Part shown: piece after piece, positions 59,788 to 64,000 of the stretch
Layout: every line of letters begins with the position of its first letter
How positions within the stretch are numbered: the first letter of the stretch is position 1
Assembly: GCA_017404955.1 (NCBI GenBank)
Contig: JAFRBH010000008.1
Coordinates: forward strand, 38,941-102,940
DNA: 64,000 bases
Source of the DNA: Candidatus Saccharimonadota bacterium
GTDB taxonomy: Bacteria > Patescibacteriota > Saccharimonadia > Saccharimonadales > Saccharimonadaceae
Direction of reading: 5' to 3'
The notes under the pieces: generated by a model
Told to the model about the DNA's origin: nothing
Databases searched by the model: none
Seen by the model: the letters and a program-made list of their open reading frames with translations, nothing else
Program-made: the position numbers and the translations under genes

Positions 59788-60219
59788 TTAAGTGTTTTTG
59801 ACTTTGACCATAGCTGGGCGAATAACATCGCCACCGTATTTGTAGCCGGAGCGGAGAGACTCGGAGACGATTTCCTTTTCCCCGTCGCCGCCTTCCATCA
59901 TGACAGCATCGTGGAGGTCTGGATTGAATTCGGTGCCGGCACTTGATTCGATTTTTTCGAGACCTAGATCTTTGGTGGTTTGCTCTAGGCTTTTTGCTAG
60001 CGGAGCTAAATCTGGCACACTGGCAATGGCGCGTTCCATATCATCTAGAAGTGGCAAAAATTTCTTAACAGTTTCTTTGCGAGCAAAGTCAGCAGTCTGG
60101 GCCTTTTGGGCATCCATTTGTTTGCGATAATTTTCAAAATCAGCACGAGTGCGCTGAAGATCGTTGGTAAGTTCAGCGATTTTTTCTTGCTCGGCGGAAG
60201 GTTTTTTTACGGTTTTCAT
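59788..60219 (-). CDS. grpE: Nucleotide exchange factor GrpE
   Basis: A 143-residue DnaK co-chaperone: an N-terminal coiled coil ('EKIAELTNDLQRTRADFENYRKQM') and a C-terminal beta domain with the signature 'ESLRSGYKYGGDVIRPAMVKV'. It is shorter than usual, mostly at the N-terminus. Its ATG overlaps the hrcA stop (ATGA), so expression follows HrcA. dnaK and dnaJ, often next in this operon, are absent here. Confidence 0.95.
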   Translation of the reverse strand: MKTVKKPSAEQEKIAELTNDLQRTRADFENYRKQMDAQKAQTADFARKETVKKFLPLLDDMERAIASVPDLAPLAKSLEQTTKDLGLEKIESSAGTEFNPDLHDAVMMEGGDGEKEIVSESLRSGYKYGGDVIRPAMVKVKNT

Positions 60220-60965
60220 AGCATTTTCTCCAACATATTACCAGCGTGACGAACGAGTGACATCACGCGACTGTAGTTCTGGCGAGTTGGGCCAAGCACA
60301 CCAATATAACTATTATCTGAATAAGGCGAGCGGAATTTGCTGATGATAAGAGAAACGCCAGAAGTTTTGCCGATTGGGTTTTCCTGACCAATGAAGATAT
60401 TTAACGGCTCACCTGGAGCGGCTTCGCGAAGCCATGGCTCAAGGTTGTCTAGCAATTTCGCAACATTCTGAACGCGAGTGTTGTCGGAAAATTCTGGCTG
60501 CGTAAAAAGCTTGGAAATACCGGCAAGATAAAGCTGATCGCCGATAGTGGCAAGACCAAGATTGCCAGTGAGCTCAACCAACGAATCGACAGCACCACGA
60601 ATGGCATAGTCGGCGCGAGTCTGGGAAGAAACACGAATCTCAAGAGCGTGGGTGCTGCGGTCAAAAGTCTTGTCAGGGATAAGGTGAGTAGGATTATTTT
60701 CGGCTTGGTCGATTTTTTGGTCGGCGTTTTCAGTCAAAGAATTTACATAAAAACGATAGCCAGCGTCAGTAGGAATACGGCCGGCAGAAGTGTGCGGCTG
60801 AGCGATGAGGCCGGCTTCTTCAAGTTTGGCCATTTCAGCACGAATGGTAGCACTGGAAACATCAAAAAGTTTGGCAAGAGTGACCGAACCAACTGGGGCG
60901 GCCATTTCGGCGTATTCTTCGATAATTGCAAAGAGAATGTCTTTTTGACGTTTGGTAATATTCAT
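60216..60965 (-). CDS. hrcA: Heat-inducible transcription repressor HrcA
   Basis: A 249-residue repressor binding CIRCE. The N-terminal winged helix is 'MNITKRQKDILFAIIEEYAEMAAPVGSVTLAK' (split at about residue 20), 'SSATIRAEMAKLEEAGLIAQPHTSAGRIPTDAGYRFYV'. The C-terminal domain ends 'VLGPTRQNYSRVMSLVRHAGNML'. It is about 90 residues shorter than typical HrcA (340), in the central and inserted domains. I chose ATG 60963-60965 because a TATAAT box ends 6 nt upstream; an earlier in-frame start would lie inside CIRCE. The gene ends with TGA. Confidence 0.95.
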   Translation of the reverse strand: MNITKRQKDILFAIIEEYAEMAAPVGSVTLAKLFDVSSATIRAEMAKLEEAGLIAQPHTSAGRIPTDAGYRFYVNSLTENADQKIDQAENNPTHLIPDKTFDRSTHALEIRVSSQTRADYAIRGAVDSLVELTGNLGLATIGDQLYLAGISKLFTQPEFSDNTRVQNVAKLLDNLEPWLREAAPGEPLNIFIGQENPIGKTSGVSLIISKFRSPYSDNSYIGVLGPTRQNYSRVMSLVRHAGNMLEKML

Positions 60966-60971
60966 AACTAT

Positions 60972-60977
60972 ATTATA
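60972..60977 (-). promoter_or_regulatory. -10 box for leaderless hrcA-grpE
   Basis: TATAAT on the minus strand, 6 nt before the ATG, with TTGCTT 17 nt further upstream inside CIRCE. Confidence 0.65.
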
Positions 60978-60982
60978 TATAA

Positions 60983-61009
60983 TTAGCACTTAAAAAGCAA
61001 GAGTGCTAA
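60983..61009. promoter_or_regulatory. CIRCE operator between hrcA and the DGR template RNA
   Basis: TTAGCACTT - N9 - GAGTGCTAA, one mismatch to the consensus arm. It overlaps the spacer and -35 of hrcA and also the -35 region of the divergent plus-strand promoter that faces the DGR template repeat. Confidence 0.93.
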
Positions 61010-61012
61010 TTG

Positions 61013-61018
61013 TATAAT
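61013..61018 (+). promoter_or_regulatory. -10 box of the putative DGR template RNA
   Basis: TATAAT facing right, with a weak TTAAAA at 17-nt spacing inside CIRCE. Predicted start near 61025, about 285 nt before the template repeat. Confidence 0.5.
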
Positions 61019-61024
61019 ATACTT

Positions 61025-61308
61025 AGTGGGGAGTGGGTGCCTCAAATGAAAAAATCGAAAAGTATTAAGGGCTTAGTAGATCTTTTGTCATTTGAACCTT
61101 TTTCTTGCGAAACGGGAGCGTCCTTGTCCATGAGCTATTAAGTTTCTGGATAAGTATCAAGCAAATTTCTCTAATCTGGCTCGGAGTAGAGAGAATCAGG
61201 AAGGCGCTTCTTATTGTCACAAAGATACTTTGAGCTGTTGTCAGTTGTGGGGAAAGTATCAGGAGGTGTAGCAGAAGATACGCCAAATCAGGGTTAAGCT
61301 CGCCGCGT
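61025..61308 (+). ncRNA. Putative 5' part of the DGR template transcript
   Basis: About 285 nt between the predicted start and the TR. It has no convincing protein gene; a 31-codon frame at 61046-61141 (opening MKKSKSIKGLVDLLSF) is the only candidate. DGR template RNAs need flanking sequence outside the TR for cDNA priming, usually on the 3' side, so this part may be structural. Extent is inferred. Confidence 0.35.
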
Positions 61309-61512
61309 ATTTCGCGCGTTCCGGCAACTACGGTGGTGGTAGCCTGAACAATAACGGTACCAACGGCAACTACTGGTCTAGTACTGCTTATAGTAGTAGT
61401 ACCAACGCGTACAACTTCAACTACAACACTTCCAATACCTACCCGCAGAACAACAACAACAAGTACAACGGCTTTAATGTCCGCTGTGTGGCGCAGTAGG
61501 GTTTTCCCAGCG
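61309..61512 (+). repeat. DGR template repeat (TR)
   Basis: A 204-nt repeat matching the VR at 63673-63876 (opposite strand) without gaps. Read on the plus strand it encodes the same C-terminal domain as the target, but with AAC/AAT at every variable codon (for example NNNNKYNGFNVRCVAQ-stop). All 20 differences from the VR are at TR adenines. It is 69 nt from the RT stop and on the opposite strand to RT. Confidence 0.95.
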
Positions 61513-61581
61513 CTCCGCAAAGAAAAGCCACCCCCACGTTTAATATTGACAACATCCGAATTGATAACGTTTTTAAAAACC

Positions 61582-62700
61582 CTAGTATTGATAGTCCCAG
61601 CCTACTGCACTAAAAACTTTGTCGCAAAGTTTCTTACCACGAATATGTTTGAGCCAACCCATATAAGACACGATGGTTTCGTTTTCTTTGAAACCTTGGC
61701 TATAACTATAGGCTGCTTGATAAAAATTGCGCTTAAACCTTTTGCCAGCAACTATGCCAAAAGGATAAATCACCATGCCAAGAAAAGCCACGCCTTTTTT
61801 TACATCTTGAATATAAATTTTGTTGGGATGTAAGATTAACCCCATCCCAGCTAAGAACTTGCGGATAGTTTCGATATCAAATATAGCTTTTTTTAACTCC
61901 GATTTTGGCACCACAATGTAAAAATCATCTACATAGCGACCGTAATGTTTATAGCCTAAAGTTTCGGTGACAAAACGGTCGAACGAATCCATGAAAATAT
62001 TTGATAAAAGTTGAGAGGATAAATTGCCGATGACAATTCCCTGGCCTTTTGGTTGATGAAACAAGCTCTTGGAGTTTGGTAAATCGTTCCAGGCCGAATA
62101 GGGTGGACGTTTCATCACACCCTTGGTGGGTTCATCAAAAATAATTTCTCGCCAAAGATATTTTAGCAAACGATATTTATCTCCACCTTTTGGCAATTGG
62201 CGGTCTAATCCCCATTTAATGCGGGCAAACAGTTTCTCCCTAGATAAACTCATGAAATAGCCCTGGACATCAAGTTTGATGATGTAAGTTGGGCGAGTAT
62301 AATTATTGGAAACCGAACGAATATCATGTTCCATACGTTTGACGCCAAAAAGAGTACCCTTGCCTTTGCGGCAAGAAAATGAATTATAGATAAGATGACG
62401 ATCCCACCATTCGGCACACATGTTATAAAGAAAATGGTGGATAACGCGATCCCTAAAAGGAGCAGCAAAAATTTCACGCTTGACTGGCTTTTCAACAACA
62501 AAAGCTACGCCTGGTGAGGGTTGGTAAGTACCGTTTAGGATATCTTCTAGAAGGATTTCGATATTTTCGGCAAAATTAACTTCAAACTTATATTCATCGG
62601 CAGTATTAGTTTTGCGCTTTCTAGCATCCATAAAAGCGATAAAAAGTTCATGGCGCAGCCAATCTTTATCAATTTTGCCATTTAGATTGGGTCCGCGCAT
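61582..62700 (-). CDS. DGR reverse transcriptase
   Basis: A 372-residue reverse transcriptase that copies the TR RNA with errors at adenines. RT motifs: RT1-2 'KPVKREIFAAPFRDRVIHHFL' (starting near 71), RT3 'IIKLDVQGYFMSLS' with catalytic Asp at about 144, RT4 'QGIVIGNLSSQLLSNIFM' at 220-237, RT5 'YVDD' at 256-259, then 'FLGMVIYP'. The IGxxxSQ form in RT4 is the mark of DGR enzymes; group II intron RTs have SP there. There is no maturase or endonuclease domain. The ATG overlaps the stop of the accessory gene (TAATG). Confidence 0.95.
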   Translation of the reverse strand: MRGPNLNGKIDKDWLRHELFIAFMDARKRKTNTADEYKFEVNFAENIEILLEDILNGTYQPSPGVAFVVEKPVKREIFAAPFRDRVIHHFLYNMCAEWWDRHLIYNSFSCRKGKGTLFGVKRMEHDIRSVSNNYTRPTYIIKLDVQGYFMSLSREKLFARIKWGLDRQLPKGGDKYRLLKYLWREIIFDEPTKGVMKRPPYSAWNDLPNSKSLFHQPKGQGIVIGNLSSQLLSNIFMDSFDRFVTETLGYKHYGRYVDDFYIVVPKSELKKAIFDIETIRKFLAGMGLILHPNKIYIQDVKKGVAFLGMVIYPFGIVAGKRFKRNFYQAAYSYSQGFKENETIVSYMGWLKHIRGKKLCDKVFSAVGWDYQY

Positions 62701-63536
62701 TATTCCGCTTCTTTGGATTTAGTACGTTTCTTAACTTCTGCTTCTACGAGACGACGAAGTTTCATCATGCCGGTGGAAAATTGATAAACCTGTTCATTGT
62801 CAAATATCCGCAGAGCAATGGCTGACAGAACATAGCCATCAAGATTGTCTACGCATTCTAGAATACCAACAATAGCTTCGGCACGCTCAAAGGTGCCCCT
62901 GGCGGCTAGTTCCACTAAGCGTACAATTTTGATAAGATTTTCCATCATTGGATCGCCGATAACACGCTGGAGGTGATGGTCGAGGTTTCTAACCATAGAA
63001 CGACAAAGTACGAGCTGATTTAAGGTCTCAGTCTTGATACCTGGCCAAATAATAGCTGTGGAAACCATTCTTGCGGCAATACTACGCTTTTCTTTATCTT
63101 CGTTCAGAAGTATATTGTATTGCTCTGGAGTAACTTTGTTACGAAGCTCAATCGCAACAAAATCCTCGTTCTTTTCTCTTTTAACTTTGTAACCGGCTTT
63201 TTCGGCGCGCTCTAGTAATCTGTTGATGTCGGGAATATGTACGATACCTGTGGAAGATGGTTGGCTGTAATCACGATCTGGCTGTATTGGGTTGGACTTC
63301 TGCCCTGGCTTTTTGATGTGGGGAAACAAAAGTTTGGCGTAATAGATGGCGCTTCTTTCAACAGCGTTCCAAAATACGCCAGTACTGCGAAAAAAGATTA
63401 TCAAACGGTCATTGGTCTTTTCACGCTTTATGACTTGCTCTTTGCGCAAGAGGTAGGCGACCTTTTCGGCCTTTTTTTGGGCCGCCGCTTGCTCAGGGTC
63501 AAGCGAGAGCGATGTCTTAGTAGATTTTGTTGCCAT
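62700..63536 (-). CDS. DGR accessory protein, MutS domain I-like with C-terminal helical domain
   Basis: A 278-residue protein directly coupled to the RT. Residues about 40-125 resemble the mismatch-recognition domain I of MutS: 'DRLIIFFRSTGVFWNAVERSAIYYAKLL' corresponds to the 'FFRxGDFYExFxEDA' segment, and 'HIPDINRLLERAEKAGYKVKREK' to 'GVPxHAxxxYLxKLxxxGYKVAI'. The Phe-x-Glu pair of true MutS is not kept (Val-Phe-Trp-Asn). Residues about 140-278 are helical with a basic end, possibly an Avd-like bundle. MutS-like accessory proteins are known in DGR surveys. AAGGA lies 8 nt before the ATG. Confidence 0.72.
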   Translation of the reverse strand: MATKSTKTSLSLDPEQAAAQKKAEKVAYLLRKEQVIKREKTNDRLIIFFRSTGVFWNAVERSAIYYAKLLFPHIKKPGQKSNPIQPDRDYSQPSSTGIVHIPDINRLLERAEKAGYKVKREKNEDFVAIELRNKVTPEQYNILLNEDKEKRSIAARMVSTAIIWPGIKTETLNQLVLCRSMVRNLDHHLQRVIGDPMMENLIKIVRLVELAARGTFERAEAIVGILECVDNLDGYVLSAIALRIFDNEQVYQFSTGMMKLRRLVEAEVKKRTKSKEAE

Positions 63537-63553
63537 TTGATACTTTCCTTAGA

Positions 63554-63582
63554 ACTTCCTTGGGGGCAAGCCCCAAGGAAGT
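63554..63582. repeat. Perfect 12-bp hairpin downstream of the VR
   Basis: ACTTCCTTGGGG pairs with CCCCAAGGAAGT around a 5-nt loop. It lies 90 nt downstream of the VR in target-gene direction and upstream of the accessory start. No T run follows. It may be an mRNA processing or homing structure. Confidence 0.6.
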
Positions 63583-63614
63583 CTTCTTCCTGGGGTTTGC
63601 GGTGAGGCTAATTG

Positions 63615-63657
63615 AAGTGTATTGAACGCTAAGTTTTGCTTAATTCAACACTTTTTT
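63615..63657 (+). terminator. Hairpin between VR and accessory gene
   Basis: AAGTG/CACTT, TTGAA/TTCAA and TAAG/CTTA stacked with small internal loops, then TTTTTT on the plus strand. It lies 16-58 nt after the VR in target direction. It works as a terminator only in plus direction, so for the target gene a DNA or RNA structural role is possible. Confidence 0.5.
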
Positions 63658-63672
63658 ATCCATTTTGCGAAA

Positions 63673-63876
63673 CGCTGGGAAAACCCTACTGCGCCACACA
63701 GCGGACATTAAAGCCGTAGTACTTGTAGCTGCCGTCCTGCGGGTAGGTATAGGAAGTGCTGTAGTCGAAGACGTACGCGCCGGTACTACTACTATAAGCA
63801 GTACTAGACCAGTAGCGGCCGTCGGTACCGTTATAGTCCAGGCTACCACCACCGTAGCGGCCGGAACGCGCGAAAT
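63673..63876 (-). repeat. DGR variable repeat (VR)
   Basis: A 204-nt copy of the TR at the 3' end of the target gene, including the stop codon and a GGG-TTTT-CCC mini-hairpin just after it. 15 codons differ from the TR by 20 substitutions, all at A, producing Arg, Asp, Tyr, Gly, Val and Ser in place of Asn. Confidence 0.95.
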
Positions 63877-64000
63877 TAAGTGGGGATGATTCTAGTTCAG
63901 AGACGTGGTTCTGGGAATTGTTAGCACCACCGGAAGTGAGGTTATAGGCGTTAGTGAGTGAACCATAAGACTTGGTGGAATCTATAGTATAGTTTGCTGG
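63686..64000 (-). CDS. DGR target protein, C-terminal FISUMP/C-type-lectin-like domain (partial)
   Basis: The last 104 residues of a gene that continues past the right edge. The sequence 'RYWSSTAYSSSTGAYVF' and the end 'YYGFNVRCVAQ' match the Fib_succ_major (FISUMP) pattern YWSS...GFxVRCV, related to the C-type-lectin fold used by DGR targets for ligand binding. Variable residues sit in the loop segments between the invariant Trp, Ser and Cys positions. The N-terminus, which would show a signal peptide or pilin motif, is not in the window. A surface location is expected from the family. Confidence 0.85.
   Translation of the reverse strand, partial: PANYTIDSTKSYGSLTNAYNLTSGGANNSQNHVSELESSPLNFARSGRYGGGSLDYNGTDGRYWSSTAYSSSTGAYVFDYSTSYTYPQDGSYKYYGFNVRCVAQ

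What the first reader, a model, noticed from the sequence alone, without database searches (positions are those of the whole stretch)
61309..64000. Complete diversity-generating retroelement in a CPR-type genome
RT with DGR signature, accessory protein, TR, VR and target are all recognisable within 2.7 kb. In so small a genome, keeping a machine for protein hypervariation suggests that variable binding, perhaps to a host cell, matters to this organism. The components are seen directly; the host-binding role is inference.
Basis: partly seen in the sequence, partly recalled or inferred. Interest (0 to 1): 0.92.

Follow-up and report, generated by a model that had tools for sequence, protein, structure and literature searches.

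The report
Flipped-template hypermutation cassette in Saccharibacteria
A very small (718-kb) bacterial genome carries a protein-diversifying cassette whose master template lies on the DNA strand opposite its copying enzyme and likely rewrites the tip of a predicted surface protein; in the copied stretch, a near-identical relative's protein differs only at positions that the template leaves variable.

Summary
The finding is real: a diversity-generating retroelement (DGR) in a 718-kb Saccharibacteria-type genome. RT, accessory protein and target lie on the minus strand. TR and VR (213 bp) differ at 22 sites, 20 of them TR adenines. The window ends at a contig end inside the target; contig C5 carries the rest (exact 141-bp overlap, lepA-hrcA synteny). 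A near-identical protein, P0001, differs from the window's VR at 13 of 17 TR-Asn codons and 0 of 45 others, so the element has diversified this target. The accessory protein's C-terminal half has a predicted Avd fold; a related target domain matches C-type-lectin folds modestly.

Of 88 non-redundant loci with a detected TR/VR pair, 68 share this, and the 67 placed in an RT tree fall in one clade; of 61 typed viral relatives, none do. The template RNA must therefore be transcribed apart from the enzyme, here perhaps from a promoter at a CIRCE/HrcA element (inference). DGRs in CPR and 'inverted' DGRs are published; this is a lineage-wide variant. Host binding is untested.

The parts
61309..61521 (+). 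Template repeat (TR), on the strand opposite RT and target
   Evidence: 22 mismatches to VR, 20 at TR adenines
61522..61581 (+). TR-RT gap (60 nt); any longer 3' spacer of the TR RNA would run antisense into the RT gene (inference)
   Evidence: coordinates; no synonymous constraint at RT 3' end; no unusual folding of the 150 nt after TR in the window (z +0.8; z -1.5 for the stretch from 30 nt before to 120 nt after the TR end)
61582..62700 (-). DGR-type reverse transcriptase, 372 aa
   Evidence: PF00078 5.4e-14; phrog_1423 1.1e-77; PDB 8ub7 7e-25, titled DGR ribonucleoprotein RT; IGNLSSQ and YVDD
62700..63536 (-). Accessory protein, 278 aa: N-terminal alpha/beta domain plus predicted Avd-fold helical bundle; its stop overlaps the RT start
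63554..63582 (.). 12-bp perfect hairpin downstream of VR
   Evidence: DNA fold z -4.9 for 63540-63680
63615..63653 (-). Imperfect stem just beyond VR 3' end
   Evidence: fold
63664..63876 (-). Variable repeat (VR)
63686..64000 (-). 3' end of the target gene (FISUMP-like C-terminal domain), cut by the contig end; the rest lies on contig C5
   Evidence: Fib_succ_major 9.1e-5, below its cut-off; exact 141-bp overlap with C5 end
60983..61009 (.). CIRCE element upstream of hrcA
   Evidence: pattern search; consensus recalled
60990..61018 (+). Promoter-like site TTAAAA-17-TATAAT facing the TR, across CIRCE (candidate TR promoter, inferred)
   Evidence: 6/6 TATAAT on the side away from hrcA in 1 of 18 same-genus hrcA loci
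61019..61308 (+). Putative 5' leader of the TR RNA (inferred)
   Evidence: no + strand promoter-like site listed inside it
60216..60965 (-). hrcA, divergent neighbour (in-frame GTG at 60989 also possible)
   Evidence: 74-84% identity in the 17 same-genus loci fetched; gene name by recall and CIRCE context, no family search run

Best explanation
This is a diversity-generating retroelement in which a reverse transcriptase and its predicted Avd-fold partner likely copy an RNA made from the opposite strand (the TR) with errors at adenines and write the copy into the 3' end (VR) of the gene for a predicted secreted C-type-lectin-fold protein. Shown: the parts, the adenine-only differences in the coding part, VR variation between near-identical targets, and the tail-to-tail TR in 67 of 78 typed members of one RT clade. 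Inferred: the copying and homing steps (as in phage BPP-1), separate transcription of the TR because it is antisense to the RT operon, the role of the hairpin downstream of VR as target mark, and display of the variable face on the cell surface for binding. In this genome the TR RNA is most simply made from a promoter that overlaps the CIRCE element shared with hrcA (inferred, one genome only).
For: A-specific TR/VR differences (P = 1.7e-9). Between window VR and P0001 (11 differences in the 549 residues of the C5 part): 13 of 17 TR-Asn codons differ, 0 of 45 others, Fisher 2.9e-10. RT motifs and DGR-RT best match. Avd-like fold of the accessory model; an open frame of accessory size directly upstream of RT in 55 of 56 convergent loci examined, one of which (L080) looks unlike the rest and one (L119) partial. 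Perfect hairpins of at least 9 bp downstream of VR in 19 of 68 loci against 0.2 expected, and downstream of TR in 4 of 68 against 0.1. TR tail to tail with RT in 68 of 88 typed loci against 0 of 61 viral ones.
Confidence: 0.87

Rival explanations
1. A decayed DGR: the parts persist, but no diversification takes place.
For: A second target copy on C11 lacks a start codon nearby and follows a stop.
Against: RT catalytic motifs are intact; VR differs from that of a near-identical target at 13 of 17 template-Asn codons and nowhere else in the VR.
Confidence: 0.06
2. The opposite-strand TR is an assembly artefact: inverted repeats of about 200 bp let assemblers flip the segment.
For: TR and VR are inverted repeats at 90% identity; contigs C5 and C11 end inside VRs.
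Against: 68 of 88 typed non-redundant loci from many assemblies agree; in 16 of the 68 the VR lies on the TR's strand, so TR and VR are direct repeats there and cannot explain a flip; viral relatives show 0 of 61.
Confidence: 0.04
3. The RT-accessory segment is an invertible module: recombination between the inverted TR and VR flips it, so that TR is sometimes co-transcribed with RT and sometimes not.
For: Two loci show the mirror order TR-accessory-RT-(target on opposite strand): L157 and L197, against 52 with target-accessory-RT-(TR on opposite strand). The shared 3' tails of TR and VR would allow crossover without spoiling the TR.
Against: Only 2 loci; both forms were not seen in one population (not searched with reads). 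The nearest tree neighbours of L157 (L125, L119) carry the VR on the TR strand, so a simple flip is not the direct step there.
Confidence: 0.15
4. TR RNA comes only from read-through of a neighbouring gene, with no promoter of its own.
For: In 16 of 68 convergent loci the target gene lies on the TR strand beyond the TR and could read into it. Promoter-like sites upstream of TRs are not enriched.
Against: In the window the neighbour hrcA points away from the TR, so no gene recognised here reads into it.
Confidence: 0.15

Closest known systems
Bordetella phage BPP-1 DGR (bRT, Avd, TR, VR; PMC12875486 and PMC3240598, passages read)
   Same: RT family, predicted Avd-like fold, adenine-specific differences, stem-loop downstream of VR
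   Different: In BPP-1 TR lies between avd and brt with its spacer before brt (PMC12875486, Fig. 1 legend); here TR is antisense, tail to tail with RT. The accessory protein here is 278 aa with an extra N-terminal domain.
'Inverted' DGRs of Shewanella, Vibrio and Photobacterium (DiGReF, PMC3521204, passage read)
   Same: RT on the strand opposite TR
   Different: There RT stands alone and TR, VR and target share the other strand. Here TR stands alone and target shares the RT strand (as in 52 of 68 convergent loci); the other 16 of 68 do match the published pattern in strand terms
DGR cassette patterns of PMC6642488 (122 groups, passages read)
   Same: Catalogue of order and orientation variants, including RT-inverted G5
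   Different: The 122 patterns are in a supplement not read, so a pattern with TR against both RT and VR may be among them
CPR DGRs, clade 2 of Roux 2021 (PMC8144416, passages read)
   Same: DGR in Patescibacteria
   Different: Targets of CPR clade 2 are said typically to show no recognisable transmembrane or conserved domain; here 31 of 38 targets scanned match Fib_succ_major and 8 the Listeria-Bacteroides repeat. Clade assignment of this RT was not tested.

Membership tests
Diversity-generating retroelement | RT with DGR motif ([I/V]GNxxSQ) and YxDD | tested here: met
   I224 G225 N226, S229 Q230 and Y256 V257 D258 D259 invariant in 30 RTs; motif definition recalled
Diversity-generating retroelement | TR/VR pair with mismatches at TR adenines | tested here: met
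   20 of 22
Diversity-generating retroelement | VR at the 3' end of a target gene | tested here: met
   VR ends 22 nt past the stop codon of the target frame
Diversity-generating retroelement | C-type-lectin-like fold of the VR domain | tested here: inconclusive
Diversity-generating retroelement | Avd-type accessory protein | tested here: met
Diversity-generating retroelement | Hairpin downstream of VR | tested here: met
   12-bp stem at 63554-63582, 81 nt from VR; phage examples lie 4-34 bp away (PMC3240598), an imperfect stem lies 10 nt away
Diversity-generating retroelement | VR diversified in related strains | tested here: met
   13 of 17 against 0 of 45, window to P0001; 13 of 17 against 2 of 45, window to P0004
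Diversity-generating retroelement | cDNA synthesis and retrohoming | not testable with these tools
   needs an assay
'Inverted' DGR type (DiGReF) | RT alone on one strand; TR, VR and target on the other | tested here: not met
   target and VR share the RT's strand in the window
MutS domain I-like N-terminal part of the accessory protein (recalled 'MSL' accessory class) | homology to MutS domain I | tested here: inconclusive
   hhalign aligns 89 columns in a collinear way, but probability 2.0% and E 0.025; controls 0.1% and 0.9%
Group II intron RT | group II maturase family score over cut-off | tested here: not met
   TIGR04416 is the best NCBIfam match but reaches 77.4 bits against a cut-off of 300

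The most novel reading that the evidence does not exclude
The cassette is a self-flipping hypermutation switch: because TR and VR are inverted repeats around the accessory-RT pair, recombination in their shared 3' tails turns the pair round without spoiling either repeat, toggling between separate, antisense template transcription (here from a heat-shock-repressor CIRCE promoter) and one transcript that carries template, accessory protein and RT.
Probability: 0.12. Interest if true: 0.87.

Novelty: new variant of a known kind. Interest (0 to 1): 0.6.

Why it matters
It shows that in one lineage of very small, presumably host-dependent bacteria a DGR arrangement with the template turned against the enzyme has been kept across most typed members of an RT clade, with strain-level variation in the target. 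That makes two open questions testable: whether DGR template RNA and enzyme can be regulated separately (the CIRCE neighbourhood suggests a stress input), and what the 3' spacer RNA looks like when it must run antisense to the RT gene. MutS domain I was found in 0 of 30 genomes searched (the own genome, 17 of its genus, 12 of its order), so cDNA mismatches may face no MutS-type repair.

Tried and rejected
Tried without result: Rfam over the window (tRNAs only). Synonymous-site constraint at the RT 3' end as a sign of a conserved antisense spacer RNA (none in 67 sequences). Folding of the TR 3' flank (mean z -1.01 over 68 loci, against -2.67 for VR flanks and about 0 for the middle of RT; window +0.8). 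Promoter enrichment upstream of TRs (not significant). Pfam and PDB sequence profiles for the accessory protein (no credible family). MutS domain I by profile comparison (inconclusive). Foldseek on the target domain and on the accessory model: no match at E of 0.001 or less. Literature: ten searches; in the listings, abstract openings and passages I saw, nothing describes a lineage-wide tail-to-tail TR, but most subscription papers, including large DGR surveys that I recall, are not held, and supplements could not be read. No population reads were available, so VR polymorphism was tested only through protein records.

Considered and set aside: group II intron, retron or Drt RT (NCBIfam scores far below cut-offs); phage-borne element (the cassette sits between lepA on C5 and hrcA, and the best-ranked phage RT is 39% identical).

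Full report
WHAT IS THERE. The window's last 3 kb hold an RT (61582-62700, minus), an accessory ORF (62700-63536, minus; its stop overlaps the RT start) and the 3' end of a target gene (63686-64000, minus). A 213-nt inverted repeat pair joins 61309-61521 to 63664-63876. Read in the coding sense of the target, the two copies differ at 22 places, 20 of them adenines in the 61309-61521 copy (P = 1.7e-9 for 20 or more of 22 given 61 A in 213). Up to the stop codon, 15 codons differ and all 15 are AAC or AAT in the template (15 of 17 such codons; 0 of 45 others). So 61309-61521 is the TR and it reads on the plus strand, opposite to RT and target. The two remaining differences, C to T, lie after the stop codon.

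ORGANISM. G001, given as same genus as the window, has contigs of the same lengths (32,553 and 232,758) as the two Nanosyncoccus alces records, so the window's genus is most likely that one.

RT. RVT_1 at 5.4e-14, phage RT family phrog_1423 at 1.1e-77. The best solved relative by sequence is 8ub7 (7e-25), titled in the structure library as the DGR ribonucleoprotein reverse transcriptase. With a profile of 30 relatives, 8ub7 scores 3.7e-45, the next (called retron-type RT) 3.8e-15 and the best chain labelled group II 1.1e-14. The catalytic aspartates and the IGNxxSQ stretch are invariant in the 30. In NCBIfam the best model is group II RT/maturase (1.1e-21), but it and the retron and Drt models stay far below their cut-offs. 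A phylogeny with all RT classes was not run.

STRAIN COMPARISON. A database protein, P0001 (606 aa; source not shown), has 11 differences to the 549 residues of the C5 part, all at residues 438-487, and none in the first 437. In the VR it differs from the window at 13 of 17 TR-Asn codons and 0 of 45 others (Fisher 2.9e-10). P0004, a different target that shares the same flank, differs from the window at 13 of 17 and 2 of 45. It does not show when, or in which cells, and it rests on two protein records.

ARCHITECTURE. I collected 137 RT loci (own genome, relatives, the 80 best named genome contigs, 20 family and order relatives) and reduced them to 114 by RT sequence. 88 have a TR/VR pair by the same script (at least 9 mismatches, at least 70% of them at A of one copy, TR within 2 kb of RT): 68 have the TR antisense and downstream of RT (median gap 41 nt; 65 of 68 at most 124 nt), 8 same strand downstream, 8 same strand upstream, 4 antisense upstream; 26 have no pair found. 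In a quick tree of 113 RTs (one short row dropped), all 67 convergent rows fall in a 99-row clade (SH-aLRT 97), where they are 67 of 78 typed rows; of 14 rows outside, 9 are typed and none is convergent. Among the 80 best viral relatives (of 229), 75 are non-redundant and 61 typed: 60 same strand upstream, 1 same strand downstream, 0 convergent. In 52 of the 68 the target lies upstream on the RT strand, as in the window; in 16 it lies on the TR strand beyond the TR. So the constant feature is the tail-to-tail TR, not the place of the target. 22 of 35 same-genus relatives carry a match to this RT, and G007 and G034 at three places each; at order level 89 of 392 genomes match.

CONSEQUENCES. Mutation at template adenines means that the TR RNA must be read from the plus strand; RT and accessory protein are read from the minus strand. 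The template must therefore be transcribed apart from the enzyme. In the window the neighbouring hrcA points away, and in the scanned stretch (60900 onward) the only plus-strand promoter-like sites upstream of the TR are at 60945-60974 and 60990-61018 (TTAAAA-17-TATAAT), the second lying across the CIRCE element 60983-61009 (10 sites found in the whole stretch against 6.3 in shuffles, so chance is not excluded). A perfect TATAAT within 16 nt of CIRCE on the side away from hrcA is present in 1 of 18 same-genus hrcA loci, namely this one, while the hrcA-side TATAAT is perfect in 16 of 18; among 12 order relatives one (L185) also has it, next to a second CIRCE-like motif. A shared HrcA-repressed promoter for the TR RNA is thus plausible but rests on one genome. 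Across the 68 loci promoter-like sites upstream of TR are not enriched (17 of 67 against 12.2). The 3' spacer that BPP-1 has after TR (PMC12875486, passages read) would here run antisense into the RT gene; I found no synonymous constraint and only mild folding bias for it. The stem-loop expected downstream of VR (PMC3240598, passages read) is present in the window, and strict hairpins are found after VR in 19 of 68 loci (0.2 expected) and after TR in 4 of 68 (0.1 expected).

FLIPPED ISOMERS. Two loci, L157 and L197, have TR, accessory and RT on one strand and the target on the other, the mirror of the window's order. An inversion between inverted TR and VR would produce this. It may be a slow evolutionary change, an assembly effect or a switch; the data do not decide.

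KNOWN OR NEW. DGRs in CPR bacteria are published (PMC8144416, passages), and so are three 'inverted' DGRs with the RT alone on one strand (PMC3521204, passage) and a catalogue of 122 cassette patterns with an RT-inverted group (PMC6642488, passages; the list itself is in a supplement I could not read). I therefore rate this a new variant of a known kind: a lineage-wide tail-to-tail template. That it is not in print is not claimed beyond the ten searches listed under Tried and rejected.

Noticed in passing
L041:1-489 (G000 contig C11): A second FISUMP-type target fragment that begins after the stop of a thioredoxin/DsbA-like ORF, has no start codon nearby and runs into a VR cut by the contig end. 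A full-length relative exists (P0004).
   Followed up: partly
L041 (C11) against L042 (C5), about 135 nt up to the first VR codons: The two targets are identical over this stretch but diverge further upstream, as gene conversion between targets would leave it.
   Followed up: no
G000 and 29 relatives: MutS domain I found in 0 of 30 genomes, while 11 of 14 control genomes have it; DGR mismatches may escape MutS-type repair.
   Followed up: partly
L160, L162: lepA ends directly at CIRCE-hrcA, the unoccupied form of the site where the window carries the DGR.
   Followed up: yes
L108, L111, L117, L120, L123, L124, L126, L131, L133: A group of RTs with no TR/VR pair detected nearby; several contigs end close to the RT.
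   Followed up: no
L122, L129, L140, L146, L153, L158 accessory ORFs: N-termini look like helix-turn-helix (Xre-like) sequences by eye, which may hint at DNA binding or autoregulation.
   Followed up: no
L135: An RT of this clade on a record labelled Bifidobacteriaceae, perhaps a mis-binned Saccharibacteria contig.
   Followed up: no
L078 (G012 contig C31): A divergent DGR with TR upstream on the RT strand lies about 3 kb from an hrcA-like gene.
   Followed up: no
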